From positions 60,066,245-60,130,244 of the forward strand of contig CM067322.1 in assembly GCA_034231615.1 (NCBI GenBank): 64,000 nucleotides of DNA, given 5' to 3'. Positions 19,800 through 64,000 of this stretch are shown one piece after another. How positions within the stretch are numbered: position 1 is the first letter of the stretch; each line of letters starts with the position of its first letter. The notes under the pieces were generated by a model that made no database searches, was not told where the DNA came from, and saw nothing but the letters and a program-made list of their open reading frames with translations. The stretch is from Meghimatium bilineatum. Lineage: Eukaryota; Mollusca; Gastropoda; Stylommatophora; Philomycidae. The position numbers and the translations under genes were made by a program.

Positions 19800-20952
19800 A
19801 ACAAAACAAAATAAAACACAAACAAAACAACAACAAAATAGAAAGAAAACACAACATACAAAACATAAATCAAAACACACAAAAATCAAACATAACAAAA
19901 TAAATGAAAACAAATACACAACACAACAGAAGAAAACATCACAAAACATAACAAAAAATACAAAAACAAAACAAACACAACAAAGAAAAACAACAAAATA
20001 AACGAAAAATCAACACACAAAAACAAAAGTAAAATGAAAACAAACCATACCAAAAACAAAATAAAAACAAGCATTCTTGTAGAATTTTTGTATTTGACCA
20101 GGAGTTTAAGAAGAGGATCTATCTAGCTATCTATCCATCCACTTATCTGTTTTTGTTTCGCTTTGTTCTGTTTTTTTTTATTTCTTTCTGTTGTTTTGTA
20201 TAGTTTAGTGTTGTTTTTGCATTTTTAATGTTGTGTTTTGTTATGTTCTATTTTGTTTGTTTAATTTAATGCTTTTCTATTTTGTTGTTTTTCTGTGTTG
20301 TTTCGTTTTATTTTTGGTATTTTGTTTTGTTTTGTTATTTTATATCTTTATTGTTTTTTTAATTTAATTTTGTTTTTGTTATTTTATGTTATGTTTTTTA
20401 GTTTTTTATTATTTTTGTTTTGTTTTTGCATAATTATATTTTTTATAGTTTTATGTTTTGTGTGTTTTGCAGTGTTTTTGTTGTTGTTATTTTTATGTTT
20501 TGTTTCTTTTCGTTTTTAGTTTGATTCTCGTGTATTTTTTTTGCTGTTTTGGTTTATGTTTACTTTAATTTGTATTGAGTTATGTTGTGTTTTGTTTTCT
20601 TTGATGTTAGTTTTTTGTGCTGTTTTTTTTGTTGTTGTTTGTGTTGTTTCGTTTTTTTGTATTTTTATATTTTTTTTTATTTTAAATTTAATTTTTGTAA
20701 TTATTTTAAGTTAATTTTTTTTTAATTTATTGTGTTTTGTTTTTCTTTATAATTGTTTTGTTTTTGTAGTATAATATTTTGTTTTCTTTTGTTGTGTTTT
20801 GGTTTTCTTCATTTGTGTTGTTATTGATATTTTATTGTATTTTTATATATTTCTTTGTTGTTTTTTTAATTTAATTTTTGTTATTTAATGTTTTTTTTAA
20901 TTTTGTTGTTGTGTTTTGTTTTTTCTTTATTATTGTTATTTCTTGTTGTTTT
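19800..20952. repeat. macrosatellite unit 0 (left partial)
   Basis: Starts directly in the A/C-rich block without core 1. Core 2 begins at about 20068 (with AGAATTTTTG in place of AGACATTTTTG), then a shortened T/G block of about 790 bases. This is the left edge of the array. Confidence 0.85.
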
Positions 20953-23900
20953 AACATTCCTTGGACACTGCTGCATTCCTGGTAGCCTGTAACAATCCTT
21001 GGATCCTGCTGTATTCCTGGTAGGTCGTATCGATGCTTGGATACAGTTGAATTAGATTGTCTCGCTTCGAGGACTAAATATGCACCCCTAAATTTTCCTA
21101 TCAGACCCATGACTCTGACACAAACATGACCCTGACACAATACAAAACAAAACAAATAAAACAAAACAAAAACAAGAAAATAAATACAAAACATACCAAA
21201 AACAAAACAAAATAAAAACAAACAAAACAACAACAAAATAGAAAGAAAACACAACATACAAAACATAAATCAAACATAACACACAAAAATCAAACATAAC
21301 AAAATAAATGAAAACAAATACACAACACAACAGAAGAAAACATCACAAAACATAACAAAAACAAAACAAACACAACATAGAAAACAAAGAAAAACAGAAC
21401 AAAATAAACGAAAAATCAACACAAAAAACAAAAGTAAAATGAAAACAAACCATACCAAAAACCAAATAAAAACAAGCATTCGTGTAGACATTTTTGTATT
21501 TGACCAGGAGTTTAAGAAGAGGATCTATCTAGCTATCTATCCATCCAGTTATCTGTTTTTGTTTCGCTTTGTTCTGTTGTTTTTTTATTTGTTTATGTTG
21601 TTTTGTATAGTTAAGTGTTGTTTTTGCTTTTTTAATGTTCTATTTTGTTTGTTTAATTTAATGTGTTTCTGTTATGGTTTCTTTGTGTATGTGTTTTGTT
21701 TTTATGTTTTCTCCTTTTTTCTTTGTTTTTCCAAATTTTGTTTGTGCTTATTCTGGTTTGATTGTTTAAATATGTTTGTTCTGTTTTGGGTTTATGTTGT
21801 TTTGTTGTGTTTTCTTTTCTTTTCTTTTTGTTATGCTATGTTATGTTTTTGATTTTTCCTTTATTCTTTTCAATTTTGTTATTCTTGTGTGTTGTTTCGT
21901 TTTATTTTTGGTATTTTGTTTTGTTTTTTCATATCTTTATTGTTTTTTAAATTTAATTTGTGTTATTTTATGTTATGTTTGTGATTTTTTTATTATTATT
22001 CTTTTGTTTTTGCATCATTATATTTTTGTTGGTTTTATGTTTTGTGTGTTTTGCTGTGTTTTGTTTGTTTTTATTTTTATGTTTTATTCCTTTTCGTTTT
22101 TAGTTTGATTCTTGTGTATTTTTTTGCTATGTTTTGTTCTTTTTTGGTTTATGTTTTGTTTAATTTGTATTGAGTTATGTTGTTTTTATTTCTTTGATGT
22201 TATTTTTTTGTTGTTTTGTTGTTGTTGTTTCTTTTTTATTTTCGTATTTTTGATTTTTTTGTAAAATTTAATTTTTGTAATTATTTAATGTTAATTTTTT
22301 TTTAATTTGTTGTGTTTTGTTGTTCTTTATTATTGTTTTGTTTTTGTAGTATAATAACTTGTTTTCTTTTGCTGTGTTTTGGTTTTCTTCATTTGCTTTT
22401 TTTATGTTTTGTTCTCTTGTTTATTTGATGTGCTATGTTTTGTTTTTTTTCTTTTAGTTTATGTTGTTGTTTTATTTTTGTTGCGCTATGTATTTTTCTT
22501 GTTTTTTTCTGTTTTCTCAAATTTTTATTTGTTTTTTTTCTGCATTGATTTTTTTAAAATGTTTGTTCTGATTTGGGTTTCTGTTTTATTTTTGTTGCGT
22601 TATGTTTTGTTGTGTTTTTGTTTTGTTGTTTTCATTTCTTTTTATTTTGCTATATTGTGTTTTGTTGTTTTCTTTGTTGTTTGTTTTTATGTTTTGTTGT
22701 TCTTTTGTGTTGTTTCGTTTTATTTTGGGTATTTTGTTATTTTTAATCTTTATTGTATTTTTGTTTTAATTATTTTTGCTATTTTATGTTTTGTTTTTGT
22801 ATTATATTTTGTTATGTTGTGTTTTTTTTGTATTGCTGTTTTGTTTGTTTTTAATCTCTTGTATTTTTGATGTGCTATGTTTGGTAATATTTTTGTTTTT
22901 CAGCTATATTTTGTTTTGTTTTTGTTGCATTATGTGTTGTTTTATTTTTTTTTTGTTTTGCTATGTTCTGTTTTGTTGCTTTATTTCTTTGTTGTTTGTT
23001 TTCTGTTTTGTTCTTTTGTGTTGGTATTGATATTTTTTGTTAATTTATATATTTCTTTGTTGTTTTTTAAAATTTAATTTCTGTTATTTAATGTTTTTTT
23101 TTTTAAATTTTGTTGTGTTTTGTTTGTTTTCATTTTTGTTTAATTTTTATGTTTAGTTTGTTTCTCTTGTATGTTTTTTTCCTATGTTTTTCCTATGTTT
23201 TTCCTGGTTTTTTTTGGTTTATGTTTTGTTTTATTTTTGTTGAGTTATGTTGTGTTGTTTTTTTTTCTTTGATGTTTGTTTTTTTTGCAGTTTTTTGTTT
23301 CGTTTTTTTGTATTTTTATATTTTTGATTTTCTTATTTTTTAAATTAATTGTTGTTGTTATTTTAAGTGTATTTTTATTTTTAATTTGTTGTGTTTTGTT
23401 TTCTTTATTATTGTTTTGTTTTTGTATTATAATATTTTTTTCTTTTGCTGTGTTTTGGTTTTCTTCATTTGCTTTTTTTATGTTTTCTTCTCTTGTTTAT
23501 TTGATGTACTATATTTTGTTTTGTTCTTTTAGTTTATGTTGTAATGTTATATTTTTGTTGCGTTATGTTTTTTTTTCTTGTTTTCTCCAATTTTGTTTGT
23601 TTTTTCTCGTTTGATTTTTTTTAAATGTTTGTTCTGATTTGGGTTTCTGTTTTATTTTTGTTGCGTTATTTTTTTGTTTTGTTGTTTTCATTTCTTTTAT
23701 TTTGCTATATTGTGTTTTATTGTTTTCTTTGTTGTTTGTTTTTATGTTTTGTTGTTCTTTTGTGTTGTTTCGTTTTATTTTGGGTATTTTTGTTTTAATT
23801 AGTTTTGTTATTTTATGTTTTGTTTTTGTATTATATTTTGTTATGTTGTGTTTTTTGTTATTGCTGTTTTGTTTTCATTTTTTTCTGTTTTGTTTGTTTT

Positions 23901-24186
23901 TAATCTCTTGTATTTTTGATGTGCTATGTTTGCTAATGTTTTTGTTTTTCTGCTATATTTTGTTTTGTTTTTGTTGCATTGTGTTGTTTTATTTTATTTT
24001 TGTTTTGCTATGTTCTGTTTTGTTGCTTTTTTCTTTGTTGTTTGTTTTCTGTTTTGTTCTTTTGTGTTGTTTCGTTTTGTTTTTGATATTTTTTTGTATT
24101 TTTATATATTTTTTTTTTTTTTTAAATTTAATTTGTATTATTTTATGTTTTCTTTATTATTGTTATGTTGTTGTTTGTTTTTGTTT
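20953..24186. repeat. macrosatellite unit 1, type I core, 3,234 bp
   Basis: Core 1 begins AACATTCCTTGGACACTGC (type I). Core 2 is at about 21473. The extra length is in the T/G block, which contains more sub-monomers than the 2-kb units, including a type-I-like tail near 23030-23100 that is not followed by a core. Confidence 0.88.
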
Positions 24187-27100
24187 AACAATCCTTGGAC
24201 ACCGCAGCATTCCTGGTAGGCTGTAACAATCTTTGAATCCTGCTGTATTTCTGATAGGTCGTATCGATGCTTGGATACAGGTGAATTAGATTGCCTCGCT
24301 TCGAGGACTAAATATTCACCCATAAATCTTCCTATCAGAACCATGATTCTGACCCAAACATGACCCTGACACAATACCAAAAAAAAAAAAAAAAAAAAAC
24401 ACAAAACAAGAAAATAAAATAAATACAAAACATACCAAAAACAAAACAAAAACAAAACAACAACAAAATAGAAAGAAAACACAACATACAAAACATAAAT
24501 CAAAACACACAAAAATCAAACATAACAAAATAAATGAAAACAAATACACAACACAACAGAAAAAAACATCACAAAACATAACAAAAAATACAAAAACAAA
24601 ACAAACACAACAAAGAAAAACAGAACAAAATAAACGAAAAATCAACACAAAAAATCAAAAGTAAAATGAAAACAAACCATACCAAAAACAAAATAAAAAC
24701 AAGCATTCTTGTAGATATTTTTGTATTTGACCAGGAGTTTAAGAAGAGGATCTATCTAGCTATATATCCATCCATTTATCTGTTTTTGTTTTGTATAGTT
24801 TTGTGTTGTTTTTTCTTTTTTAATGTTCTATTTTGTTTGTTTAATTTAATGTGTTTCTGTTATGGTTTTTTTGTGTATGTGTTTTGTTTTTATGTTTTCT
24901 TCTTTTTTCTTTGTTTTTCCAAATTTTGTTTGTGTTTTTTCTGGTTTGATTGTTTAAATATGTTTGTTCTGTTTTGGGCTTATGTTGTTTTGTTGTTTTC
25001 TTTTCTTTTTGTTATGCTATGTTATGTTTTGATTTTTTCTTCGTTCTAATCTATTTTGTTGTTCTTGTGTGTTGTTTCGTTTTATTTTTGGTATTTTGTT
25101 TTGTTTTTTCATATCTTTATTGTTTTTTAAATTTAATTTGTGTTATTTTATGTTATGTTTGTGTTTTTTTTATTATTATTCTTTTGTTTTTGAATCATTA
25201 TATTTTTGTTGGTTTTATGTTTTGTGTGTTTTGCTGTATTTTGTTTGTTTTTATTTTTATGTTTTATTCCTTTTCGTTTTTAGTTTGATTCTTGTGTATT
25301 TTTTTTGCTATGTTTTGTTCTTTTTTGGTTTATGTTTTGTTTAATTTGTATTGAGTTATGTTGTTTTTATTTCTTTGATGTTATTTTTGTTGTTGTTGTT
25401 GTTGTTTCGTTTTTTTCGTATTTTTGATTTTTTTGTAAAATTTAATTTTTGTAATTATTTAAAGTTAATTTTTTTTTAAATTTGTTGTGTTTTGTTTTTC
25501 TTTATTATTGTTTTGTTTTTGTAGTATAATATCTTGTTTTCTTTTGCTGTGTTTTGGTTTTCTTCATTTGCTTTTTTTGTTTTGTTCTCTTGTTTATTTG
25601 ATGTGCTATGTTTCGTTTTTTTTCTTTTAGTTTATGTTGTTGTTTTATTTTTGTTGCGTTATGTATTGTTTTTTTCTTATTTTTTTCTGTTTTCTCAAAT
25701 TTTTATTTGTTTTTTTCTGCTTTGATTTTTTTTAAATGTTTGTTCTGATTTGGGTTTCTGTTTTATTTTTGTTGCGTTATGTTTTGTTGTGTTTTTGTTT
25801 TGTTGTTTTCATTTCTTTTTATTTTGCTATATTGTGTTTTGTTGTTTTCTTTGTTGTTTGTTTTTATGTTTTGTTGTTCTTTTGTGTTGTTTCGTTTTAT
25901 TTTGGGTATTTTATTATTTTTAATCTTTATTGTATTTTTGTTTTAATTATTTTTGCTATTTTATGTTTTGTTTTTGTATTATATTTTGTTATGTTGTGTT
26001 TTTTTTATTGCTGTTTTGTTTGTTTTAAATCTCTTGTATTTTTGATGTGCTATGTTTGGTAATATTTTTGTTTTTCAGCTATATTTTGTTTTGTTTTTGT
26101 TGCATTATGTGTTGTTTTATTTTTTTTTTGTTTTGCTATGTTCTGTTTTGTTGCTCTATTTCTTTGTTGTTTGTTTTCTGTTTTGTTCTTTTGTGTTGGT
26201 ATTGATATTTTTTGTATGTTTATATATTTCTTTGTTGTTTTTTTAAATTTAATTTTTGTTATTTAATGTGTTTTTCTTTAAATTTTGTTGTGTTTTGTTT
26301 GTTTTCATTTTTGTTTAATTTTTATGTTTAGTTTGTTTCTCTTGTATGTTTTTTTCCTATCTTTTGGTTTTTTTTGGTTTATGTTTTGTTTTATTTTTGT
26401 TGAGTTATGTTGTGTTGTTTTTTTTTCTTTGATGTTTGTTTTTTTTTTGCTGTTTTTTGCTTCGTTCTTTTGTATTTTTATATTTTTGATTTTCTTATTT
26501 TTTAAATTAATTGTTGTTGTTATTTTAAGTGTATTTTTATTTTTAATTTGTTGTATTTTGTTTTCTTTATTATTGTTTTGTTTTTGTATTATAATATTTT
26601 TTTCTTTTGCTGTGTTTTGGTTTTCTTCATTTGCTTTTTTTATGTTTTCTTCTCTTGTTTATTTGATGTACTATATTTTGTTTTGTTCTTTTAGTTTATG
26701 TTGTAATGTTATATTTTTGTTGCGTTATGTTTTTTTTCTTGTTTTTTCCAATTTTGTTTGTTTTTTCTCCTTTGATTTTTTTAAAATTTTTGTTCTGATT
26801 TGGGTTTCTGTTTTATTTTTGTTGCGTTATGTTTTTGTTTTGTTGTTTTCATTTCTTTTATTTTGCTATATTGTGTTTTATTGTTTTCTTTGTTGTTTGT
26901 TTTTATGTTTTGTTGTTCTTTTGTGTTGTTTCGTTTTATTTTGGGTATTTTTGTTTTAATTAGTTTTGTTATTTTATGTTTTGTTTTTGTATTATATTTT
27001 GTTATGTTGTGTTTTTTGTTATTGCTGTTTTGTTTTCATTTTTTTCTGTTTTGTTTGTTTTTAATCTCTTGTATTTTTGATGTGCTATGTTTGCTAATAT

Positions 27101-27350
27101 TTTTGTTTTTCTGCTATTTTTTGTTTTGTTTTTGTTGCATTATGTGTTGTTTTATTTTATTTTTGTTTTGCTATGTTCTGTTTTGTTGATTTTTTCTTTG
27201 TTGTTTATTTTCTGTTTTGTTCTTTTGTGTTGTTTCGTTTTGTTTTTGATATTTTTTTGTATTTTTATATATTTTTTATTGTTTTTTTAAATTTAATTTG
27301 TATTATTTTATGTTTCTTTATTATTGTTATGTTGTTGTTTGTTTTTGTTT
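24187..27350. repeat. macrosatellite unit 2, type II core, 3,164 bp
   Basis: Core 1 begins AACAATCCTTGGACACCGC (type II). An A19-type homopolymer follows the core at about 24380. The T/G block closely parallels that of unit 1. Confidence 0.88.
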
Positions 27351-29470
27351 AACAATCCTTGGACACCGCAGCATTCCTGGTAGGCTGTAACAATCTTTGA
27401 ATCCTGCTGTATTTCTGATAGGTCGTATCGATGCTTGGATACAGGTGAATTAGATTGCCTAGCTTCGAGGACTAAATATTCACCCATAAATCTTACTATC
27501 AGAACCATGACTCTGACCCAAACATGACCCTGACACAATACAAAAAAAAAAAAAAAAACAGAACAAGAAAATAAAATAAATACAAAACATACCAAAAACA
27601 AAACAACAACAAAATAGAAAGAAAACACAACATACAAAACATAAATCAAAACACACAAAAATCAAACATAACAAAATAAATGAAAACAAATACACAACAC
27701 AACAGAAAAAAACATCACAAAACATAACAAAAAATACAAAAACAAAACAAACACAACAAAGAAAAACAGAACAAAATAAACGAAAAATCAACACAAAAAA
27801 TCAAAAGTAAAATGAAAACAAACCATACCAAAAACAAAATAAAAACAAGCATTCTTGTAGATATTTTTGTATTTGACCAGGAGTTTAAGAAGAGGATCTA
27901 TCTAGCTATATATCCATCCATTTATCTGTTTTTGTTTCGCTTTGTTCTGTTGTTTTGTATAGTTTTGTGTTGTTTTTTCTTTTTTAATGTTCTATTTTGT
28001 TTGTTTAATTTAATGTGTTTCTGTTATGGTTTTTTTTGTGTATGTGTTTTGTTTTTATGTTTTCTCCTTTTTTCTTTGTTTTTCAAAATTTTGTTTGTGT
28101 TTTTTCTGGTTTGATTGTTTAAATATGTTTGTTCTGTTTTGGGTTTATGTTGTTTTGTTGTTTTCTTTTCTTTTTGTTATGCTATGTTATGTTTTGATTT
28201 TTTCTTCGTTCTTTTCTATTTTGTTGTTCTTGTGTGTTGTTTCGTTTTATTTATGGTATTGTTTTGTTTTGTTATTTTATATCTATATTGTTTTTTTAAT
28301 TTAATTTTGTTTGTTATTTTATGTTATGTTTTTTTATTATTATTGTTTTGTTTTTGCATCATTATATTTTGTTGGTTTTATGTTTTGTATGTTTTGCTGT
28401 GTTATTTTTATTTCTTTTCGTTTTTAGTTTGATTGTCGTGTATTTATTTTTTTTGCTGTTTTGTTCTTTTTTGGTTTATGTTTAGTTTTATTTTTATTGA
28501 GTTATGTTGTGTTTTTTTTTCTTTGATGTTATTTTTTTTCCTTTTTTTCTTTATATTTTTGAATTGTTTTTTTTTAAATTTAATTTTTGTAGTTATTTTA
28601 AGTTAATTTATTTTTTTAATTTGTTGTTTTGTTTTCTTTATTATTGTTTTGTTTTTGTAGTATAATATTTTGTTTTCTTTTGCTGTGTTTTGGTTTTCTT
28701 CGTTTGCTTTTTAATGTTTTGTTCTCTTGTTTATTTGATGTGCTATGTTTTGTTTTGTTCTTTTAGTTTATGTTGTTTTATTTTTGTTGCGTTATGTATT
28801 GTTTTCTTTGTTTTCTCCAAATTTGTTTGATTTTTCTGCTTTGATTTATTTTAAATATTTGTTCTGATTTGGGTTTCTGTTTTATTTTTGTTGCGTTATA
28901 TTTTGTTGTGTTTTTGTTTTGTTGTTTTAATTTCTATTTGTTTAGCTATATTGTGTTTTGTTGTTTTCTTTGTTGTTTGTTTTTATGTTTTGTTGTTCTT
29001 TTGTGTTCTTTCGTTTTATTTTGTGTATTTTGTTATTTTATATCTTTATTGTATTTTTGTTTTAATTAGTTGTGTTATTTTAGGTATTGTTTTTGTATTA
29101 TATTTTGTTATGTTGTGTTTTTTTTGTATTGCTGTTTTTTTTCATTTTTTTCTGTTTTGTTTGTTTTTAATCTCTTGTATTTTTGATGTGCTATGTTTGG
29201 TAATATTTTTGTTTTTCAGCTATATTTTGTTTTGTTTTTGTTGCATTATGTGTTGTTTAATTTTATTTTTGTTTTGCTATGTTCTGTTTTGTTGCTTTTT
29301 TTCTTTGTTGTTTGTTTTCTGTTTTGTTCTTTTGTGTTGTTATTGATATTTTTTGTATGTTTATACATTTCTTTCTTGTTTTTTTAAATTTAATTTCTGT
29401 TATTTAATGTTTTTTTAAATTTTGTTGTTGTGTTTTGTTTTTCTTTATTATTGTTATTTCTTGTTGTTTT
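27351..29470. repeat. macrosatellite unit 3, type II core, 2,120 bp
   Basis: Type II core with a poly-A tract at about 27542. The shorter T/G block ends in a type-I tail (TGTTATTTCTTGTTGTTTT) leading to the next, type I, core. Confidence 0.88.
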
Positions 29471-32400
29471 AACATTCCTTGGACACTGCTGCATTCCTGG
29501 TGGGCTGTAACAATCCTTGGATCCTGCTGTATTCCTGGTAGGTCGTATCGATGCTTGGATACAGTTGAATTAGATTGTCTCGCTTCGAGGACTAAATATG
29601 CACCCCTAAATCTTCCTATCAGAACCATGACTCTGACACAAACATGACCCTGACACAATACAAAACAAAACAAATGAAACAAAACAAAAACAAGAAAATA
29701 AATACAAAACATACCAAAAACAAAGCAAAAACAAACAAAACTACATCAAAATAGAAAGAAAACACAACATACAAAACATAAATCAAAACACACAACACAA
29801 CAAAATAAATGAAAACAAATACACAACACAACAGAAAAAAACATCATAAAACATAACAAAAATAAAACAAACACAACATAGAAAACAAAGAAAAACAGAA
29901 CAAAATAAACGAAAAATCAACACAAAAAACAAAAGTAAAATGAAAACAAACCATACCAAAAACAAATAAAAACAAGCATTCTTGTATACATATTTGTATT
30001 TGACCAGGAGTTTAAGAAGAGGATCTATCTAGCTATCTATCCATCCATTTATCTGTTTTTGTTTCGCTTTGTTCTGTTGTTTTTTATTTGTTTATGTTGT
30101 TTTGTATAGTTATTTTGTTGTTTTTGCTTTTTTAATGTTCTATTTTGTTTGTTTAATTTAATGTGTTTCTGTTTTGGTTTTTTGTGTATGTGTTTTGTTT
30201 TTATGTTTTCTCCTTTTTTCTTTGTTTTTCAAAAAAAACTTTCTTTTTTTCTGGTTTGATTGTTTAAATATGGTTGTTTTGGGTTTATGTTGTTTTGTTG
30301 TGTTTTCTTTTCTTTTCTTTTTGTTATGCTATGTTATGTTTTTGATTTTTCCTTTGTTCTTTTCAATTTTGTTGTTCTTGTGTGTTGTTTCGTTTTATTT
30401 TTGGTATTTTGTTTTGTTTTTTCATATCTTTATTGTTTTTTAAATTTAACTTGTGTTATTTTATGTTATGTTTGTGATTTTTCTATTATTATTAATTTTT
30501 TTTGCATCATTATATTTTTGTTGGTTTTATGTTTTGTGTGTTTTGCTGTATTTTGTTTGTTTTTATTTTTATGTTTTATTCCTTTTCGTTTTTAGTTTGA
30601 TTCTCGTGTATTTTTTTTGCTATGTTTTGTTCTTTTTTGGTTTATGTTTTGTTTAATTTGTATTGAGTTATGTTGTTTTTTATTTCTTTGATGTTATTTT
30701 TTGTTGTTGTTGTTTCGTTGTTGTTTTTTTGTATTTTTGATTTTTTTGTAAAATTTAATTTTTGTAATTATTTAAAGTTAATTTTCTTTAAATTTGTTGT
30801 GTTTTGTTTTTCTTTATTATTGTTTTGTTATTGTAGTATAATATCTTGTTTTCTTTTGCTGTGTTTTGGTTTTCTTCATTTGATTTTTTTGTTTTGTTCT
30901 CTTGTTTATTTGATGTGCTATGTTTTGTTTTTTTCTTTTAGTTTATGCTGTTGTTTTATTTTTGTTGCGTTATGAATTGTTTTTTTCTTGTTTTTTCAGT
31001 TTTCTCAAATTTGTATTTCTTTTTTTCTGCTTTGATTTTTTTTAAATGTTTGTTATGATTTGGGTTTCTGTTTTATTTTTGTTGCGTTATGTTGTGTTGT
31101 GTTTTTGTTGTTTTCATTTCTTTTTATTTTGCTATATTGTGTTTTGTTGTTTTCTTTGTTGTTTGTTTTTATGTTTTGTTGTTCTTTTGTGTTGTTTCGT
31201 TTTATTTTGGGTATTTTGTTATTTTATATCTTTATTGTATTTTTGTTTTAATTATTTTTGTTATTTTATGTTTTGTTTTTGTATTATATTTTGTTATGTT
31301 GTATTTTTTTGTATTGCCGTTTTGTTTGTTTTTAATCTCTTGTATTTTTGATGTGCTATGTTTGGTAATATTTTTGTTTTTTTTCAGCTATATTTTGTTT
31401 TGTTTTTGTTGCATTATGTGTTGTTTTATTTTATTTTTGTTTTACTATGTTCTGTTTTGTTGCTTTATTACTTTGTTGTTTGTTTTCTGTTTTGTTCTTT
31501 TGTGTTGTTATTGATATTTTTTTGTATGTTTATATATTTCTTTGTTGTTTTTTTAAATTTAATTTTTGTTATTTAATGTGTTTTTTTTTAAATTTTGTTG
31601 TGTTTTGTTTGTTTTAATTTTTGTTTATTTTTATGTTTAGTTTGTTTCTCTTGTATTTTTTTTCCCTATCTTTTGTTCTTTTTTGGTCCATGTTTTGTTC
31701 TATTTTTGTTGAGTTATGTTGTGTTGTTTTTTTTCTTTGATGTTTGTTTTTTTTGCTGTTTTTTATTTAGTTTTTATTTGTATTTTTATATTTTTGATTT
31801 TATTTTTTAAATTAATTGTTGTTATTTTAAGTGTATTTTTATTTTTAATTTGTTGTGTTTTGTTTTCTTTATTATTGTTTTGTTTTTGTATTATAATATT
31901 TTTCTCTTTTGCTGTGTTTTGGTTTTCTTCATTTGCTTTTTTATGTTTTGTTCTCTTGTTTATTTGATGTGCTATGTTTTGTTTTGTTCTTTTAGTTTAT
32001 GTTGTAATGTTATATTTTGTTGCGTTATGTTTTTTTTTCTTGTTTTCTCCAATTTTGTTTGTTTTTTTCTGCTTTGTTTTTTTGTAAATGTTTGTTCTGA
32101 TTTGGGTTTCTGTTTTATTTTTGTTGCGTTATGTTTTTGTTTTGTTGTTTTCCTTTCTTTTATTTTGCTATATTGTGTTTTATTGTTTTCTTTGTTGTTT
32201 GTTTTTATGTTTTGTTGTTCTTTTGTGTTTTTTCGTTTTATTTTAATTATTTTTGTTTTAATTAGTTTTGTTATTTTATGTTTTGTTTTTGTATTATATT
32301 TTGTTATGTTGTGTTTTTTTTTATTGCTGTTTTGTTTTCATTTTTTTCTGTTTTGTTTGTTTTTAATCTCTTGTATTTTTGATGTGCTATGTTTGCTAAT

Positions 32401-32655
32401 ATTTTTTGTTTTTCTGCTATATTTTGTTTTGTTTTTGTTGCATTATGTGTTGTTTTATTTTATTTTTCTTTTGCTATGTTCTGTTTTGTTGCTTTTTTCT
32501 TTGTTGTTTGTTTTCTGTTTTGTTCTTTTGTGTTGTTTCGTTTTGTTTTTGATATTTTTTTGTATTTTTATATATTTTTTATTGTTTTTTTTAAATTTAA
32601 TTTGTATTATTTTATGCTTTCTTCATTATTGTTATGTTGTTGTTTGTTTTTGTTT
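29471..32655. repeat. macrosatellite unit 4, type I core, 3,185 bp
   Basis: Second type I core. The long T/G block resembles that of units 1 and 2. Confidence 0.88.
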
Positions 32656-34765
32656 AACAATCCTTGGACACCGCAGCATTCCTGGTAGGCTGTAACAATC
32701 TTTGAATCCTGCTGTATTTCTGATAGGTCGTATCGATGCTTGGATACAGTTGAATTAGATTGCCTCGCTTCGAGGACTAAATATGCACACATAAATCTTC
32801 CTATCAGAACCATGACTCTGACCCAAACATGACCCTGACACAATACAAAACACAAAAAAACAACAACAAAACACAAACAAGAAAATAAAATAAATACAAA
32901 ACATACCAAAAACAAAAGAAAAACAAAACAACAACAAAATAGAAAGAAAACACAACATACAAAACATAAATCAAAACACACAAAAATCAAACATAACAAA
33001 ATAAATGAAAACAAATACACAACACAACAGAAAAGAACATCACAAAACATAACAATACCAAAAAAAACACAACAAAGAAAAACAACAAAATAAACGAAAA
33101 ATCAACACAAAAAATCAAAAGTAAAATGAAAACAAACCATACCAAAAACAAAATAAAAACAAGCATTCTTGTAGACATTTTTGTATTTGACCAGGAGTTT
33201 AAGAAGAGGATCTATCTAGCTATCTATCCATCCATTTATCTGTTTTTGTTTCGCTTTGTTCTGTTGTTTTGTATAGTTTTGTGTTGTTTTTTTATTTTTT
33301 AATGTTCTATTTTGTTTGTTTAATTTAATGTGTTTCTGTTACGGTTTTTTTGTGTATGTGTTTTGTTTTTATGTTTTCTCCTCTTTTTTTTCCAAATTGT
33401 GTTTGTTTTTTCTGGTTCGATTGTTTAAATATGTTTGTTCTGGGTTTATGTTGTTTTGTTGTGTTTTCTTTTCTTTTTGTTATGCTATGTTATGTTTTGA
33501 TTTTTTATTTGTTCTTTTCTATTTTGTTGTTCTTGTGTGTTGTTTCGTTTTATTTATGGTATTTTGTTTTGTTATTTTATATCTTTATTGTTTTTTTAAT
33601 TTAATTTTGTTTGTTATTTTATGTTATGTTTTTTTATTATTATTGTTTAGTTTTTGCATCATTATATTTTCGTTGGTTTTATGTTTTGTGTGTTTTGCTG
33701 TGTTATTTTTATTTCTTTTCGTTTTTAGTTTGATTGTCGTTGATTTATTTTTTTTTGCTGTTTTGTTCTTTTTTGGTTTATGTTTATTTTTATTTAGTTA
33801 TGTTGTGTTTTTCTCTTCTTTAATGTTGTGTTTTTTTTTCTTTGATGTTCGGTTTTTTTGTATTTTTTTATATTTTTGAATTGTTTTTTTTTTTAATTTA
33901 ATTTTTGTAGTTATTTTAAGTTAATTTATTTTTTTAATTTGTTGTTTTGTTTTCTTTATTATTGTTTTGTTTTTGTAGTATAATATTTTGTTTTCTTTTG
34001 CTGTGTTTTGGTTTTCTTCATTTGCTTTTTTCTGTTTTGTTCTCTTGTTTATTTGATGTGCTATGTTTTGTTTTGTTCTTTTAGTTTATGTTGTTTAATT
34101 TTTGTTGCGTATTTGTTGTTTTCTTTGTTTTCTCAAAATTTGTTTGTTTTTTCTGCTTTGATTTTTTTTTAATGTTTGTTCTGATTTGCGTTTCTGTTTT
34201 ATTTTTGTTGCGTTATGTTTTGCTGTGTTTTTGTTTTGTTGTTTTCATTTCTTTTTATTTTGCTATATTGTGTTTTCTTTGTTGTTTGTTTTTATGTTTT
34301 GTTGTTCTTTTGTGTTGTTTCGTTTTATATTGGGTATTTTGTTATTTCATATCTTTATTGTATTTTTGTTTTAATTAGTTTTGTTATTTTATGTTTCGTT
34401 TCTGTATTATATTTTGTTATGATGTGTTTTTTTGTATTGCTGTTTTGTTTTCATTTTTTTCTGTTTTGTTTGTTTTTAATCTCTTGTATTTTTGATGTGC
34501 TATGTTTGTTAATATTTTTGTTTCTCTGCTATATTTTGTTTTGTTTTCGTTGCATTATGTGTTGTTTTATTTTATTTTTGTTTTGCTATGTTCTGTTTTG
34601 TTGATTTTTTCTTTGTTGTTTGTTTTCTGTTTTGTTCTTTTGTGTTGTTTCGTTTTGTTTTTGATATTTTTTGTATTTTTATATATTTTTTATTGTTTTT
34701 TTAAATTTAATTTGTATTATTTTATGTTTTCTTTATTATTGTTATGTTGTTGTTTGTTTTTGTTT
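32656..34765. repeat. macrosatellite unit 5, type II core, 2,110 bp
   Basis: Type II core, with CACACATAAATC where most units have CACCCATAAATC. First of the run of roughly 2-kb units. Confidence 0.88.
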
Positions 34766-53678: not shown

Positions 53679-55698
53679 AACAATCCTTGGACACCGCAGC
53701 ATTCTTGGTAGGCTGTAACAATCTTTGAATCCTGCTGTATTTCTGATAGGTCGTATCGATGCTTGGATACAGTTGAATTAGATTGCCTCACTTCGAGGAC
53801 TAAATATGCACCCATAAATCTTCCTATCAGAACCATGACTCTGACCCAAACATAACCCTGACACAATACAAAACAAAACAAGAAAATAAAATAAATACAA
53901 AACATACCAAAAACAAAACAAAATCAAAATAGAAAGAAAACACAACATACAAAACATAAATCAAAACACACAAAAATCAAACATAACAAAATAAATGAAA
54001 ACAAATACACAACACAACAGAAAAAAACATAACAATACAAAAACTAAACAAACACAACAAAGAAAAACAGAACAAAATAAACGAAAAATCAACACAAAAA
54101 AACAAAAGTAAAATGAAAACAAACCATACCAAAAACAAAATAAAAACAAGCATTCTTGTAGACATTTTTGTATTTGACCAGGAGTTTAAGAAGAGGATCT
54201 ATCTAGCTATCTATCCATCCATTTATCTGTTTTTGTTTCGCTTTGTTCTGTTGTTTTGTATAGTTTTTGCTTTTTTTAATGTTCTATTTTGTTTGTTTAA
54301 TTTAATGTGTTTTTGTTATGGTTTTTTTGTGTATGTGTTTTGTTTTTATGTTTTCTCCTTTTTTCTTTGTTTTTCCAAATATTTTTTTTTCTGGTTTGAT
54401 TGTTTAAATATGTTTGTTCTGTTTTGGGTTTATGTTGTTTTGTTGTGTTTTCTTTTCTTTTTGTTATGCTATGTTATGTTTTGATTTTTTATTTGTTCTT
54501 TTCTATTTTGTTGTTCTTGTGTGTTGTTTCGTTTTATTTATGGTATTGTTTTGTTTTGTTATTTTATATCTTTATTGTTTTTTTAATTTAATTTTGTTTG
54601 TTATTTTATGTTATGTTTTTTTATTATTATTGTTTAGTTTTTGCATCATTATATTTTTGTTGGTTTTATGTTTTGTGTGTTTTGCTGTGTTATTTTTATT
54701 TCTTTTCGTTTTTAGTTTGATTGTCGTGTATTTATTTTTTTTGCTGTTTTGTTCTTTTTTGGTTTGTTTTTTTAAAATTTTTATTGAGTTATGTTGTGTT
54801 TTTCTTTTTTTTAATGTTGTGTGTTTTTTTTCTTTGATGTTCGTTTTTTTGTATTTTTTTGAATTGTTTTTTTTTTATGTAATTTTTGTAGTTATTTTAA
54901 GTTAATTTTTTTTTTAATTTGTTGTTTTGTTTTCTTTATTATTGTTTTGTTTTTGTAGTATAATATTTTGTTTTCTTTTGCTGTGTTTTGGTTTTCTTCA
55001 TTTGCTTTTTTATGTTTTGTTCTCTTGTTTATTTGATGTGCTATGTTTTGTTTTGTTCTTTTAGTTTATGTTGTTTAATTTTTGTTGCGTATTTGTTGTT
55101 TTCTTTGTTTTCTCAAAATTTGTTTGTTTTTTCTGCTTTGATTTTTTTTTAATGTTTGTTCTGATTTGCGTTTCTGTTTTATTTTTGTTGCGTTATGTTT
55201 TGCTGTGTTTTGCTATATTGTGTTTTGTTGTTTTCTTTGTTGTTTGTTTTTATGTTTTGTTGTTCTCTTCGTTTTATTTTGGGTATTTTGTTATTTTATA
55301 TCTTTATTGTATTTTTGTTTTAATTATTTTTGTTATTTTATGTTTTGTTTCTGTATTATATTTTGTTATGTTGTGTTTTTTTGTATTGCTGTTTTGTTTT
55401 CATTTTTTTCTGTTTTGTTTGTTTTTAATCTCTTGTATTTTTGATGTGCTATGTTTGTTAATATTTTTGTTTCTCTGCTATATTTTGTTTTGTTTTTGTT
55501 GCATTGTGTTGTTTTATTTTATTTTTGTTTTGCTATGTTCTGTTTTGTTGATTTTTTCTTTGTTGTTTGTTTTCTGTTTTGTTCTTTTGTGTTGTTTCGT
55601 TTTGTTTTTGATATTTTTTGTATTTTTATATATTTTTTTAATTTAATTTGTATTATTTTATGTTTTCTTTATTATTGTTATGTTGTTTGTTTTTGTTA
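53679..55698. repeat. macrosatellite unit 15, type II core, 2,020 bp
   Basis: Standard length, but shares GTCGTGTATTTATT and GATGTTCGTTTTTTTG variants with the expanded units on either side. Confidence 0.9.
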
Positions 55699-58354
55699 AA
55701 CAATCCTTGGACACCGCAGCATTCTTGGTAGGCTGTAACAATCTTTGAATCCTGCTGTATTTCTGATAGGTCGTATCGATGCTTGGATACAGTTGAATTA
55801 GATTGCCTCACTTCGAGGACTAAATATGCACCCATAAATCTTCCTATCAGAACCATGACTCTGACCCAAACATAACCCTGACACAATACAAAACAAAACA
55901 AGAAAATAAAATAAATACAAAACATACCAAAAACAAAACAAAATCAAAATAGAAAGAAAACACAACATACAAAACATAAATCAAAACACACAAAAATCAA
56001 ACATAACAAAATAAATGAAAACAAATACACAACACAACAGAAAAAAACATAACAATACAAAAACTAAACAAACACAACAAAGAAAAACAGAACAAAATAA
56101 ACGAAAAATCAACACAAAAAAACAAAAGTAAAATGAAAACAAACCATACCAAAAACAAAATAAAAACAAGCATTCTTGTAGACATTTTTGTATTTGACCA
56201 GGAGTTTAAGAAGAGGATCTATCTAGCTATCTATCCATCCATTTATCTGTTTTTGTTTCGCTTTGTTCTGTTGTTTTGTATAGTTTTTGCTTTTTTTAAT
56301 GTTCTATTTTGTTTGTTTAATTTAATGTGTTTTTGTTATGGTTTTTTTGTGTATGTGTTTTGTTTTTATGTTTTCTCCTTTTTTCTTTGTTTTTCCAAAT
56401 ATTTTTTTTTCTGGTTTGATTGTTTAAATATGTTTGTTCTGTTTTGGGTTTATGTTGTTTTGTTGTGTTTTCTTTTCTTTTTGTTATGCTATGTTATGTT
56501 TTGATTTTTTATTTGTTCTTTTCTATTTTGTTGTTCTTGTGTGTTGTTTCGTTTTATTTATGGTATTGTTTTGTTTTGTTATTTTATATCTTTATTGTTT
56601 TTTTAATTTAATTTTGTTTGTTATTTTATGTTATGTTTTTTTATTATTATTGTTTAGTTTTTGCATCATTATATTTTTGTTGGTTTTATGTTTTGTGTGT
56701 TTTGCTGTGTTATTTTTATTTCTTTTCGTTTTTAGTTTGATTGTCGTGTATTTATTTTTTTTGCTGTTTTGTTCTTTTTTGGTTTGTTTTTTTTAAATTT
56801 TTATTGAGTTATGTTGTGTTTTTCTTTTCTTTAATGTTGTGTGTTTTTTTTCTTTGATGTTCGTTTTTTTGTATTTTTTTGAATTGTTTTTTTTTTATGT
56901 AATTTTTGTAGTTATTTTAAGTTAATTTTTTTTTTAATTTGTTGTTTTGTTTTCTTTATTATTGTTTTGTTTTTGTAGTATAATATTTTGTTTTCTTTTG
57001 CTGTGTTTTGGTTTTCTTCATTTGCTTTTTTATGTTTTGTTCTCTTGTTTATTTGTTGCGTTATGTATTGTTTTCTCAGAATTTGTTTGTTTTTTCTGCT
57101 TTGTTTTTTTTAAATGTCTGTTCTGATTTGGGTTTCTGTTTTATTTTTGTTGCGTTATGTTTTGTTGTGTTTTTGTTTTGCTAAATTGTGTTTTGTTGTT
57201 TTCTTTGTTGTTTGTTTTTATGTTTTGTTGTTCTTTCGTTTTATTTTGGGTATTTTGTTATTTTATATCTTTATTGTTTTTTTAATTTAATTTTGTTTGT
57301 TATTTTATGTTATGTTTTTTTATTATTATTGTTTAGTTTTTGCATCATTATATTTTTGTTGGTTTTATGTTTTGTGTGTTTTGCTGTGTTATTTTTATTT
57401 CTTTTCGTTTTTAGTTTGATTGTCGTGTATTTATTTTTTTTGCTGTTTTGTTCTTTTTTGGTTTGTTTTTTTAAAATTTTTATTGAGTTATGTTGTGTTT
57501 TTCTTTTCTTTAATGTTGTGTGTTTTTTTTCTTTGATGTTCGTTTTTTTGTATTTTTTTGAATTGTTTTTTTTTTATGTAATTTTTGTAGTTATTTTAAG
57601 TTAATTTTTTTTTTAATTTGTTGTTTTGTTTTCTTTATTATTGTTTTGTTTTTGTAGTATAATATTTTGTTTTCTTTTGCTGTGTTTTGGTTTTCTTCAT
57701 TTGCTTTTTTATGTTTTGTTCTCTTGTTTATTTGTTGCGTTATGTATTGTTTTCTCAGAATTTGTTTGTTTTTTCTGCTTTGTTTTTTTTAAATGTCTGT
57801 TCTGATTTGGGTTTCTGTTTTATTTTTGTTGCGTTATGTTTTGTTGTGTTTTTGTTTTGCTAAATTGTGTTTTGTTGTTTTCTTTGTTGTTTGTTTTTAT
57901 GTTTTGTTGTTCTTTCGTTTTATTTTGGGTATTTTGTTATTTTATATCTTTATTGTATTTTTGTTTTAATTATTTTTGTTATTTTATGTTTTGTTTCTGT
58001 ATTATATTTTGTTATGTTGTGTTTTTTTGTATTGCTGTTTTGTTTTCATTTTTTTCTGTTTTGTTTGTTTTTAAACTCTTGTATTTTTGATGTGCTATGT
58101 TTGTTAATATTTTTTGTTTCTCTGCTATATTTTGTTTTGTTTTTGTTGCATTATGTGTTGTTTTATTTTATTTTTGTTTTGCTGTTCTGTTTTGTTGATT
58201 TTTTCTTTGTTTTCTGTTTTGTTCTTTTGTGTTGTTTCGTTTTGTTTTTGATATTTTTTTGTATTTTTATATATTTTTTATTGTTTTTTTTAAATTTAAT
58301 TTGTATTATTTTATGCTTTCTTCATTATTGTTATGTTGTTGTTTGTTTTTGTTT
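55699..58354. repeat. macrosatellite unit 16, type II core, 2,656 bp
   Basis: Same 679-base internal expansion as unit 14 (CTTTATTG blocks at 56590, 57269 and 57948). Confidence 0.9.
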
Positions 58355-60305
58355 AACAATCCTTGGACACCGCAGCATTCCTGGTAGGCTGTAACAATCT
58401 TTGAATCCTGCTGTATTTCTGATAGGTCGTATCGATGCTTGGATACAGTTGAATTAGATTGCCTCGCTTCGAGGACTAAATATGCACCCATAAATCTTCC
58501 TATCAGAACCATGACTCTGACACAATACAAAACAAAAAAAACACAAACAAGAAAATAAAATAAATACAAAACATACCATAAACAAAACAAAAAAATAGAA
58601 AGAAAACACAACATACAAAACATAAATCAAAACACACAAAAATCAAACATAACAAAATAAATGAAAACAAATACACAACACAACAGAAAAGAACATCACA
58701 AAACATAACAATACAAAAACAAAACAAACACAACAAAGAAAAACAGAACAAAATAAACGAAAAATCAACACAAAAAATCAAAAGTAAAATGAAAATAAAC
58801 CATACCAAAAACAAAATAAAAACAAGCATTCTTGTAGATATTTTTGTATTTGACCAGGAGTTTAAGAAGAGGATCTATCTAGCTATATATCCATCCATTT
58901 ATCTGTTTTTGTTTCGCTTTGTTCTGTTTTGTATAGTTTTGTGTTGTTTTTTCTTTTTTAATGTTCTATTTTGTTTGTTTAAGTTAATGTGTTTCTGTTT
59001 TTTTTGTGTATGTGTTTTGTTTTTATGTTTTCTCCTTTTTTCTTTGTTTTTCAAAATTTTGTTTGTGTTTTTTCTGGTTTGATTGTTTAAATATGTTTGT
59101 TCTGGGTTTATGTTGTTTTGTTGTGTTTTCTTATCTTTTTGTTATGCTATGTTATGTTTTGATTTTTTCTTTGTTCTTTTCTATTTTGTTGTTCTTGTGT
59201 GTTGTTTCGTTTTATTTATGGTATTCTGTTTTGTTATTTTATATCTGTTTTTTAATTTAATTTTGTTTGTTATTTTATGTTATGTTTTTTTTATTATTAT
59301 TGTTTTGTTTTTGCATCATTATATTTTTGTTGGTTTTATGTTTTGCTGTGTTATTTTTATTTCTTTTCGTTTTTAGTTTGATTGTCGTGTATTTATTTTT
59401 TTGCTGTTTTGTTCTTTTTTGGTTTGTTTTTTTTAAATTTTTATTGAGTTATGTTGTGTTTTTCTTTTCTTTAATGTTGTGTGTTTTTTTTCTTTGATGT
59501 TCGTTTTTTTGTATTTTTTTGAATTGTTTTTTTTAATGTAATTTTTGTAGTTATTTTAAGTTAATTTTTTTTTTAATTTGTTGTTTTGTTTTCTTTATTA
59601 TTGTTTTGTTTTTGTAGTATAATATTTTGTTTTCTTTTGCTGTGTTTTGGTTTTCTTCATTTGCTTTTTTATGTTTTGTTCTCTTGTTTATTTGTTGCGT
59701 TATGTATTGTTTTCTTTGTTTTCTCAGAATTTGTTTGTTTTTTCTGCTTTGTTTTTTTTAAATGTCTGTTCTGATTTGGGTTTCTGTTTTATTTTTGTTG
59801 CGTTATGTTTTGTTGTGTTTTTGTTTTGCTAAATTGTGTTTTGTTGTTTTCTTTGTTTGTTTTTATGTTTTGTTGTTCTTTCGTTTTATTTTGGGTATTT
59901 TGTTATTTTATATCTTTATTGTATTTTTGTTTTAATTATTTTTGTTATTTTATGTTTTGTTTCTGTATTATATTTTGTTATGTTGTGTTTTTTTGTATTG
60001 CTGTTTTGTTTTCATTTTTTTCTGTTTTGTTTGTTTTTAATCTCTTGTATTTTTGATGTGCTATGTTTGTTAATATTTTTGTTTCTCTGCTATATTTTGT
60101 TTTGTTTTTGTTGCATTATGTGTTGTTTTATTTTATTTTTGTTTTGCTGTTCTGTTTTGTTGATTTTTTCTTTGTTTTCTGTTTTGTTCTTTTGTGTTGT
60201 TTCGTTTTGTTTTTGATATTTTTTTGTATTTTTATATATTTTTTAAAATTTAATTTGTATTATTTTATGCTTTCTTCATTATTGTTATGTTGTTTGTTTT
60301 TGTTT
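58355..60305. repeat. macrosatellite unit 17, type II core, 1,951 bp
   Basis: The core has the intact CCTCGCTTCGAGG hairpin. It lacks the ACCCAAACATGACCCTG segment near the end of core 1 that most units carry. Confidence 0.88.
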
Positions 60306-62298
60306 AACAATCCTTCGACACCGCAGCATTCCTGGTAGGCTGTAACAATCTTTGAATCCTGCTGTATTTCTGATAGGTCATATCGATGCTTGGATACAGT
60401 TGAATTAGATTGCCTCGCTTCGAGGACTAAATATGCACCCATAAATCTTCCTATCAGAACCATGACTCTGACACAATACAAAACAAAAAAAACACAAACA
60501 AGAAAATAAAATAAATACAAAACATACCATAAACAAAACAAAAAAATAGAAAGAAAACACAACATACAAAACATAAATCAAAACACACAAAAATCAAACA
60601 TAACAAAATAAATGAAAACAAATACACAACACAACAGAAAAGAACATCACAAAACATAACAATACAAAAACAAAACAAACACAACAAAGAAAAACAGAAC
60701 AAAATAAACGAAAAATCAACACAAAAAATCAAAAGTAAAATGAAAATAAACCATACCAAAAACAAAATAAAAACAAGCATTCTTGTAGATATTTTTGTAT
60801 TTGACCAGGAGTTTAAGATGAGGATCTATCTAGCTATATATCCATCCATTTATCTGTTTTTGTTTCGCTTTGTTCTGTTTTGCATAGTTTTGTGTTGTTT
60901 TTTCTTTTTTAATGTTCTATTTTGTTTGTTTAAGTTAATGTGTTTCTGTTTTTTTTTGTGTATGTGTTTTGTTTTTATGTTTTCTCCTTTTTTCTTTGTT
61001 TTTCAAAATTTTGTTTGTGTTTTTTCTGGTTTGATTGTTTAAATATGTTTGTTCTGGGTTTATGTTGTTTTGTTGTGTTTTCTTATCTTTTTGTTATGCT
61101 ATGTTATGTTTTGATTTTTTCTTTGTTCTTTTCTATTTTGTTGTTCTTGTGTGTTGTTTCGTTTTATTTATGGTATTCTGTTTTGTTATTTTATATCTGT
61201 TTTTTAATTTAATTTTGTTTGTTATTTTATGTTATGTTTTTTTTATTATTATTGTTTTGTTTTTGCATCATTATATTTTTGTTGGTTTTATGTTTTGCTG
61301 TGTTATTTTTATTTCTTTTCGTTTTTAGTTTGATTGTCGTGTATTTATTTTTTTGCTGTTTTGTTCTTTTTTGGTTTGTTTTTTAAAATTTTTTTATTGA
61401 GTTATGTTGTGTTTTTTTTACTTTGATGTTCGTTTTTTTTGTATTTTTTTTTATTTTTGAATTGTTTTTTTTAAATTTAATTTTTGTAGTTATTGTAAGT
61501 TAATTTTTTTTTTAATTTGTTGTTTTGTTTTTGTTATTATTGTTTTGTTTTTGTAGTATAATATTTTGTTTTCTTTTACTGTGTTTTGGTTTTCTTCATT
61601 TGCTTTTTTATGTTTTGTTCTCGTTTATTTGATGTACTATGTTTTGTTCTTTTAGTTTATGTTGTTTTATTTTTGTTGCGTTATGTATTATTTTTGTTTT
61701 CTTGTTTTTTCTCAAATTTTGTTTTTTTCTGCTTTGATTTTTTTTAAATGTTTGTTCTGATTTGGGTTTCTGTTTTATTTTTGTTGTGTTTTTCTTTTGT
61801 TGTTTTCATTTCTTTTTGTTTTCCTATATTGTGTTTTGTTGTTTTCTTTGTTTGTTTTTATGTTTTGTTGTTCTTTTGTGTTGTTTCGTTTTATTTTGGG
61901 TATTTTGTTATTTTATATCTTTATTGTATTTTTGTTTTAATAATTTTTGTTATTTTATGTTTTGTTTTTGTATTATATTTTGTTACGTTGTTTTTTTTAA
62001 TTGCTGTTTTGTTTGTTTTTAATCTCTTGTATTTTTGATGTGCTATGATTGGTAATATTTTTGTTTTTCTGTTATATTTTGTTTCGTTTTTGTTGCATTA
62101 TGTGTTTTATTTTTGCTATGTTCTGTTTTGTTGCTGTTTTCTTTGTTGTTTGTTTTCTGCTTTGTTCTTTTGTGTTGTTATTGATATTTTTTGTACTTTA
62201 TATATTTCTTTGTTTTTTTAATTTAATTTTTATTTAATGTTTTTTTTAATTTTGTTGTTGTGTTTTGTTTTTTCTTTATTATTGTTATTTCTTGTTTT
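60306..62298. repeat. macrosatellite unit 18, type II core, 1,993 bp
   Basis: Shares the short core-1 end with unit 17. Core 1 shows CCTTCGACACCGC and AGGTCATATCGATG point changes. The end of its T/G block switches to type-I-like sequence. Confidence 0.88.
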
Positions 62299-63118
62299 AA
62301 CATTCCTTGGACACTGCTGCATTCCTGGTGGGCTGTAACAATCCTTGGATCCTGCTGTATTCCTGGTAGGCTGTATCGATGCTTGGATACAGTTGAATTA
62401 GATTGTCTCGCTTCGAGGACTAAATATGCACCCATAAATCTTCCTATCAGAACCATGACCCTGACACAATACAAAACAGAACAAACAATAAAACCAAAAA
62501 AACACACAAACAATAAAATAAATACAAAACATACCAAAAACAAAACAGAAAGAAAACACAACATACAAAAATAAAACAAATCAAAACACACAAAAATCAA
62601 ACAACAAAATAAATGAAAACAAATACAAACTACAACAGAAAAAAAACATCACAAAACAAAACAAAAATACAAAAACAAAACAAACACAACACAGTTAAAA
62701 CAAAACAAAAATCAACACAACAAAACAAAGTAAAATGAAAACAAAACTTACATAAAACAAGCATTCTTGAAGACATTTTTGTAATTGACCAGGAGTTTAA
62801 GAAAAGGTTCTATCTAGCTATCTATCGATACATCTGTTTTTGTTTTGCTTTTTTATTTATTTCTGTTGTTTTTGCTTTTTTATATTGTTTTGTTATGTTT
62901 TATTTTATTTGTTTAGTTTAATCTGTGTTTTTGTTATGTTTTTTTTCTAGTTTTTTTTAAATTGTGTTTGTTTTTTCTGCTTTGTTCTTTTGTGTTGTTA
63001 TTGATATTTTTTGTACTTTATATATTTCTTTGTTTTTTTAATTTAATTTTTATTTAATGTTTTTTTTAATTTTGTTGTTGTGTTTTGTTTTTTCTTTATT
63101 ATTGTTATTTCTTGTTTT
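62299..63118. repeat. macrosatellite unit 19, type I core, 820 bp
   Basis: Strongly shortened: core 1, A/C block, diverged core 2 (GAAGACATTTTTGTAATTG, TATCTATCGATACATC) and only about 330 bases of T/G sequence. It is repeated exactly by the next unit. Confidence 0.9.
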
Positions 63119-64000
63119 AACATTCCTTGGACACTGCTGCATTCCTGGTGGGCTGTAACAATCCTTGGATCCTGCTGTATTCCTGGTAGGCTGTATCGAT
63201 GCTTGGATACAGTTGAATTAGATTGTCTCGCTTCGAGGACTAAATATGCACCCATAAATCTTCCTATCAGAACCATGACCCTGACACAATACAAAACAGA
63301 ACAAACAATAAAACCAAAAAAACACACAAACAATAAAATAAATACAAAACATACCAAAAACAAAACAGAAAGAAAACACAACATACAAAAATAAAACAAA
63401 TCAAAACACACAAAAATCAAACAACAAAATAAATGAAAACAAATACAAACTACAACAGAAAAAAAACATCACAAAACAAAACAAAAATACAAAAACAAAA
63501 CAAACACAACACAGTTAAAACAAAACAAAAATCAACACAACAAAACAAAGTAAAATGAAAACAAAACTTACATAAAACAAGCATTCTTGAAGACATTTTT
63601 GTAATTGACCAGGAGTTTAAGAAAAGGTTCTATCTAGCTATCTATCGATACATCTGTTTTTGTTTTGCTTTTTTATTTATTTCTGTTGTTTTTGCTTTTT
63701 TATATTGTTTTGTTATGTTTTATTTTATTTGTTTAGTTTAATCTGTGTTTTTGTTATGTTTTTTTTCTAGTTTTTTTTAAATTGTGTTTGTTTTTTCTGC
63801 TTTGATTTTTTTGATGTTTGTTCTATTTTGGGTTTTTGTTGTTTTGTTTTCTTTTTGTTTTGCTATTTTTATTGTTTTTTTGTTCTTGAGTGTTGTTTCG
63901 TTTTCTTTTTGGTATTTTTTTGTTGCTATTTTATATCTTTATTGTTTTTTAATTTAATTTGTTATGTTATTTTATTTTATTTATTATTGTTTTGTTTTTC
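63119..64000. repeat. macrosatellite unit 20, type I core, runs off the window
   Basis: Identical by eye to unit 19 up to about 63804, then continues into a T/G block with no duplicate in the window (TTTGATTTTTTTGATGTTTG). Confidence 0.88.

What the first reader, a model, noticed from the sequence alone, without database searches (positions are those of the whole stretch)
19800..64000. 44-kb macrosatellite whose strands alternate between amino (A/C) and keto (T/G) composition
Each unit of about 2 kb reverses base composition twice: almost pure A/C for about 300 bases, core 2, then almost pure T/G for 1.3 kb or more, then core 1. Ordinary satellites do not show such block-wise keto/amino skew. 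The reverse complement of the A/C block has the same vocabulary as the T/G block (for example TTTTTGGTAT, TTTTGTTATG), so the A/C block may be an inverted, diverged copy and each unit could fold back around core 2. I recognise no described satellite with this plan. Whether it is structural, centromeric or transcribed is unknown.
Basis: partly seen in the sequence, partly recalled or inferred. Interest (0 to 1): 0.75.

Follow-up and report, generated by a model that had tools for sequence, protein, structure and literature searches.

The report
Satellite with alternating T/G and A/C blocks
This is a long, apparently non-coding eukaryotic tandem repeat whose roughly 2-kilobase units join two short unique cores to oppositely oriented, worn-down TTTTG-type simple-sequence blocks; it looks odd but seems to grow by ordinary duplication and recombination.

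Summary
From about 19,792 to the window end, 20 copies of core 1 and 21 of core 2 alternate with A/C blocks (about 86% A+C, 277-351 bp) and T/G blocks (about 83% G+T; 18 of 21 are 1.35-2.6 kb). Nineteen units are 820-3,234 bp long, 13 of them 1,951-2,120 bp. Units U08-U13 are 99.7-100% alike; outer units are 92-95% to them, as in a satellite array.

The inverted-copy idea is not supported. Reverse-complemented A/C blocks match T/G blocks no better than Markov-shuffled sequence in 4 of 4 units tested; simulated copies of 69% identity or more were mostly detected, copies near 60% were not. The T/G block is instead a nest of direct duplications. Both block types show a five-base periodicity. Fold-back energy is explained by composition. 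Point changes are eroding the keto bias, 36 against 6, so asymmetric mutation is not now maintaining it.

Best reading: a composite satellite/microsatellite, a new variant of a known kind. Host species, abundance and function are undetermined; the whole-genome tool did not complete.

The parts
19792..64000 (+). Tandem array, cut by the window end; begins inside a truncated A/C block
   Evidence: Core 1 starts: 20953, 24187, 27351, 29471, 32656, 34766, 36803, 38839, 40860, 42887, 44909, 46931, 48953, 50980, 53679, 55699, 58355, 60306, 62299, 63119
44909..46930 (+). Example unit of the homogenised centre (U11 counting from core 1 at 20953; called U10-type here because the script labels the unit starting at 42887 U10 and this one U11)
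   Evidence: 2,022 bp; the scripts used these coordinates under the label U10
44909..45101 (+). core 1 of the example unit
45102..45382 (+). A/C block of the example unit
45383..45464 (+). core 2 of the example unit
45465..46930 (+). T/G block of the example unit; contains diverged direct duplications at shifts of about 300-320, 400, 745 and 1,070 bp
20074..20154 (+). first core 2; the other 20 core 2 copies start at 21479, 24706, 27852, 29979, 33166, 35267, 37277, 39320, 41334, 43361, 45383, 47405, 49427, 51454, 54153, 56173, 58829, 60780, 62764, 63584
20953..24186 (+). long unit U01 (3,234 bp), T/G block with an internal direct duplication at a shift of 1,029-1,078 bp
50980..53678 (+). long unit U14 (2,699 bp), T/G block with a recent direct duplication at a shift of 679 bp
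62299..63118 (+). short unit U19 (820 bp)

Best explanation
An apparently non-coding composite satellite/microsatellite. Shown: each unit holds two short complex cores separated by degenerate simple sequence with a five-base periodicity, TTTTG-like on one side and CAAAA-like on the other; the T/G block contains nested direct duplications, old and recent; the array centre is homogenised and its outer units diverged; point changes now erode the T/G bias. Inferred: the blocks began as TTTTG/CAAAA-type microsatellites in opposite orientation on the two sides of the cores, expanded by slippage and local duplication, and the composite unit was amplified by unequal crossing-over or gene conversion. 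Strand composition is then a relic of the motif that expanded, kept by turnover. Any cellular role (heterochromatin, centromere) is unshown.
For: Tandem cores and unit lengths. Centre-to-edge identity gradient. Lag-5 autocorrelation of G 0.16-0.27 in 2 T/G and 2 A/C blocks, the largest of lags 1-25 in each (no shuffle control was run). Direct duplications in T/G: 17 of 23 windows of the example unit match elsewhere in the block above the maximum of 60 null scores; its two halves score 70.3 against null mean 18.3, maximum 29.2 of 100. Singleton changes in T/G: 36 keto-to-amino, 6 amino-to-keto, binomial p 2.8e-6, largest ratio in 1,200 equilibrium simulations 3.0; same with another aligner, 28:4 with wider context, 27:5 to 40:10 leaving out one group, 26:8 and 20:4 in short units only. 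No RNA gene in the array by Rfam gathering scores.
Against: Five-base slippage is not clearly active now: multiples of five are 14 of 45 among gap lengths 4-27 (p 0.07). Base composition explains most of the shared vocabulary of the two blocks. A/C and core 2 are less variable than T/G (24 of 260 and 7 of 82 variable sites against 207 of 1,213; p 0.001 and 0.045), which neutral turnover alone does not predict, though singleton rates show no deficit for core 2 (5 of 62 against 63 of 796). Nothing tested explains why the blocks have opposite orientations. No copy outside this array could be examined. Homology of the frames in the array to known proteins was not searched.
Confidence: 0.7

Rival explanations
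1. The unit derives from a foldback-type transposon or an inverted duplication: A/C and T/G are the two arms around core 2, since diverged, later amplified as a satellite.
For: Opposite strand bias on the two sides of each core and shared 5-mers; foldback elements have fed satellites before (Tetris, PMC4079207, abstract seen). In plain scoring U01 exceeded 2 of 6 null sets.
Against: Composition-corrected alignment finds no inverted similarity in 4 of 4 units nor in 8 of 8 A/C windows of U01. The arms are unequal, about 300 against 1,350-2,600 bp. Copies at about 60% identity would be missed (2-4 of 40 detected), so an ancient origin stays open.
Confidence: 0.12
2. Core 2 is a bidirectional start (replication origin or promoter) and strand-asymmetric mutation makes both departing strands keto-rich, with core 1 as the meeting point.
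For: The skew flips from A/C to T/G at core 2 and back at core 1, the sign expected (recalled) at an origin or divergent promoter.
Against: Changes within T/G now run against the bias, 36 to 6. A five-base period is not expected from point mutation. The A/C block gave only 4 usable singletons, too few to test. Past asymmetric mutation is not excluded.
Confidence: 0.06
3. Assembly artefact.
For: Some neighbouring units are identical in the matrix (U11 and U12 at 1.000); no reads could be examined.
Against: Most units differ in length and sequence, with a graded divergence from centre to edge and several length classes. Copy number may still be wrong.
Confidence: 0.04

Closest known systems
TmSat4/(AC)n satellite/microsatellite conjunction of Tribolium madens (PMC13081366; abstract, passages and section 8 seen)
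   Same: Complex satellite units regularly separated by strand-biased simple sequence of variable length.
   Different: There the spacers are one dinucleotide, up to 418 bp; here two degenerate five-base-periodic blocks of opposite strand bias, up to 2.6 kb, per unit.
TmSat2 of Tribolium madens, subunits in opposite orientation inside a 704-bp monomer (PMC13081366; passages seen)
   Same: Potential fold-back inside each tandem unit.
   Different: TmSat2 arms are related in sequence; here the pairing potential is explained by composition.
Tetris foldback element and TIR-220 satellite, Drosophila virilis (PMC4079207; abstract and section list seen)
   Same: A repeat-rich unit amplified into a satellite.
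   Different: Tetris has terminal inverted repeats with about 220-bp internal repeats; no recognisable inverted arms here.
Heptanucleotide satellites of Drosophila virilis (PMC6922343; passages seen)
   Same: A/C bias of one strand.
   Different: 7-bp repeats without cores; no reversal within a unit is mentioned in the passages seen.

Membership tests
satellite DNA | head-to-tail units of one orientation | tested here: met
   20 core 1 and 21 core 2, all on the + strand
satellite DNA | concerted evolution with a homogenised centre | tested here: met
satellite DNA | high copy number and heterochromatic location | not testable with these tools
   own-genome search not answered; no cytology
satellite/microsatellite conjunction | complex units alternating with simple sequence | tested here: met
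   composition and lag-5 periodicity (no shuffle control); the simple sequence is strongly degenerate
foldback transposon | long inverted repeats | tested here: not met
   power
foldback transposon | target-site duplications and dispersed copies | not testable with these tools
   genome could not be searched
tandem RNA-gene array (rDNA, tRNA, snRNA) | an RNA gene in the unit | tested here: not met
   one Rfam match in the window, a tRNA at 6371-6443, outside the array
CENP-B-box centromeric satellite | NTTCGNNNNANNCGGGN (recalled motif) | tested here: not met
   best match in one unit has 2 mismatches and lies in the T/G block; many centromeric satellites lack the box (recalled), so this excludes little

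The most novel reading that the evidence does not exclude
Dyad symmetry kept at the level of composition rather than sequence: each single strand of a unit can fold A/C onto T/G around core 2 whatever the exact letters, so that turnover keeps complementary block composition as a structural property of the array, with the less variable A/C block and core 2 as its nucleus.
Probability: 0.08. Interest if true: 0.65.

Novelty: new variant of a known kind. Interest (0 to 1): 0.33.

Why it matters
It is a satellite unit whose strand composition reverses inside each unit, with enough variation between units to separate three possible sources of the bias: inverted copying, asymmetric mutation, and expansion of simple motifs. 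The data here favour the last. If fold-back by composition were shown to matter, it would extend the macro-dyad idea proposed for Tribolium satellites (PMC13081366, abstract and passages seen) to arrays without a sequence dyad.

Tried and rejected
Inverted copy: in plain scoring U01 scored 213, above all 60 second-order T/G shuffles and all 100 third-order A/C shuffles but within the other four null sets; U10, U17 and U18 lay within all their null sets. Composition-corrected scoring put U10, U01, U03 and U17 inside the null at both settings. Encoded fold-back: z -1.66, +0.38, -1.44 against 30 block shuffles each; two of three lean towards better folding, so a weak effect is not excluded. RNA structure of the cores: none more stable than shuffles, z 0.53, 0.52, 2.35, 1.08. 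Core 1 has one perfect 10-bp inverted pair, 82 bp apart; core 2 none of 6-12 bp.

Coding: 139 stop-to-stop frames of 80 aa or more overlap 20,000-64,000; they look low-complexity by eye and were not searched against families. Five flank frames: one RVT_1 match above cut-off; ten more flank frames: no Pfam family at 0.01. This is 15 of the 36 flank frames, some of them trimmed by a codon.

Relatives: a 20-base core 1 pattern and a 24-base core 2 pattern, 0 exact matches in viral contigs; the core 2 pattern, 0 in prokaryote genome contigs; the example unit, no match in phages. As described by the tools these are viral or prokaryote collections, so the negatives mean little for a eukaryote repeat.

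Dropped before counts: in the substitution test, columns within 4 of a gap in any of 18 units (796 of 1,211 T/G columns kept) and units U00p, U19, U20p; near-identical units were merged into 10 groups. In one search U00p, U19 and U20p aligned at only 80-88% to the 18 other units; they are short and may be misaligned. Singletons take the majority as ancestral; star-tree equilibrium simulations give a small bias from this. The table showed 150 of 553 rows.

Full report
WHAT IS THERE. The window looks eukaryotic: the first 19.8 kb holds reverse-transcriptase fragments, a tRNA-headed repeat and microsatellites. From about 19,792 a tandem array begins and runs to the window end. G+T in 500-bp steps swings from 0.24 to 0.84, against 0.38-0.57 in the flank.

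A NOTE ON LABELS. numbers units U01-U19 from their core 1, so the unit at 44909-46930 is U11 there and U10 is 42887-44908. The scripts used 44909-46930 under the label U10. The two units are 99.9% alike, so no result turns on this; here I call 44909-46930 the example unit. The column-based tests used the sequences, with block limits taken from the example unit (both are 2,022 bp). The label U17 means A/C 60477-60779, core 2 60780-60861 and T/G from 60862, which is U18; the label U18 means A/C 62470-62763 with T/G 62842-63112, which is U19.

ARRAY DYNAMICS. Between core 1 starts there are 19 units: 13 of 1,951-2,120 bp, 3 of about 3.2 kb, 2 of about 2.7 kb and 1 of 820 bp. U08-U13 are 99.7-100% alike. 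U01, U02 and U04 are 92-94% to them, U03 95%, U18 95%, U17 97%; the partial or short U00p, U19 and U20p are 80-87%, with possible misalignment. This is the pattern of unequal exchange or conversion with diverged edges.

INSIDE THE UNIT. With scoring corrected for the T-rich background, T/G shows strong direct self-similarity. In the example unit 17 of 23 windows match elsewhere in the block above the null maximum, at shifts of about 300-320, 400, 580, 745 and 1,070 bp; in U01 mainly 1,029-1,078 and about 800 bp; in U14 mainly 679 bp with scores up to 117.7 for 120-bp windows. So the block grows by nested direct duplications, some old, some recent. Reverse-complemented A/C blocks score 16.1-20.8 against T/G in four units at two settings, null means 16.6-21.3. 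With a fixed threshold of 25, simulated 281-bp copies were detected in 33-40 of 40 at 69% identity or more, 30 and 14 of 40 at 65% (2% and 5% indels), and 4 and 2 of 40 at 60%. Null maxima reached 30.3, so this power is somewhat optimistic. A recognisable inverted copy is excluded; an ancient one is not. Lag-5 autocorrelation of G is 0.16-0.27 in two T/G and two A/C blocks, the largest of lags 1-25 in each, which points to TTTTG/CAAAA-type simple sequence; no shuffle control was run for this.

FOLDING. A/C, core 2 and an equal length of T/G (644-748 nt) fold at -98 to -112 kcal/mol with 169-232 cross-block pairs, against -55 to -64 for four flank stretches of 642 nt. Shuffling within each block gives means of -86 to -105, z -1.66, +0.38 and -1.44. 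The fold-back potential is real but is mainly a property of composition.

WHY THE BIAS. Changes private to one unit group in T/G run 36 keto-to-amino against 6 the other way, and 40 away from T against 12 towards it. Star-tree equilibrium simulations never exceeded a ratio of 3.0 in 1,200 runs. The result held with another aligner (36:6), wider context (28:4), leaving out one group (27:5 to 40:10) and short units only (26:8; wider context 20:4). Point mutation is eroding the bias, so expansion and homogenisation must have made and kept it; that last step is inference. A/C gave 4 usable singletons, too few to test.

CONSTRAINT. Among 10 representative units core 1 is as variable as T/G (28 of 176 against 207 of 1,213 sites, p 0.75); core 2 and A/C are less variable (7 of 82, p 0.045; 24 of 260, p 0.001). 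Singleton rates agree for A/C (4 of 175) but not for core 2 (5 of 62 against 63 of 796). This may be selection, conversion or lower mutability.

LEFT EDGE. The flank just before the array reads FADDLVL in one + frame, a motif typical (recalled) of reverse transcriptases; ATACCAAAAAC occurs both at this junction and inside the array. The array may have been joined there at short homology; this is inference.

COMPARISON. The nearest described kind that I found is the satellite/microsatellite conjunction TmSat4/(AC)n; its authors also cite a Penaeus vannamei case and call such records scarce (PMC13081366, passages and section 8). This array differs by two opposite blocks per unit and by their length and degeneracy, and is filed as a new variant of that kind. 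Species and abundance remain unknown because the genome tool did not complete (nine calls).

Noticed in passing
12289-12945 (-): A broken retrotransposon-like frame (read by eye) is interrupted by an A/C-rich 34-bp minisatellite at 12662-12780; a related motif recurs at 11837-12099.
   Followed up: partly
6371-6640 (+): tRNA-headed, SINE-like repeat: Rfam tRNA match at 6371-6443, followed by a tail ending near TTTTACTTTACTTTT.
   Followed up: no
11163-11507 (+): Reverse-transcriptase fragment (Pfam RVT_1, 1.4e-10).
   Followed up: partly
20952-21044 (+): The start of core 1 is itself a short tandem of a 19/38-bp motif.
   Followed up: partly
45102-45464 (+): A/C block and core 2 have fewer variable sites between units than the T/G block; cause unknown.
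   Followed up: partly
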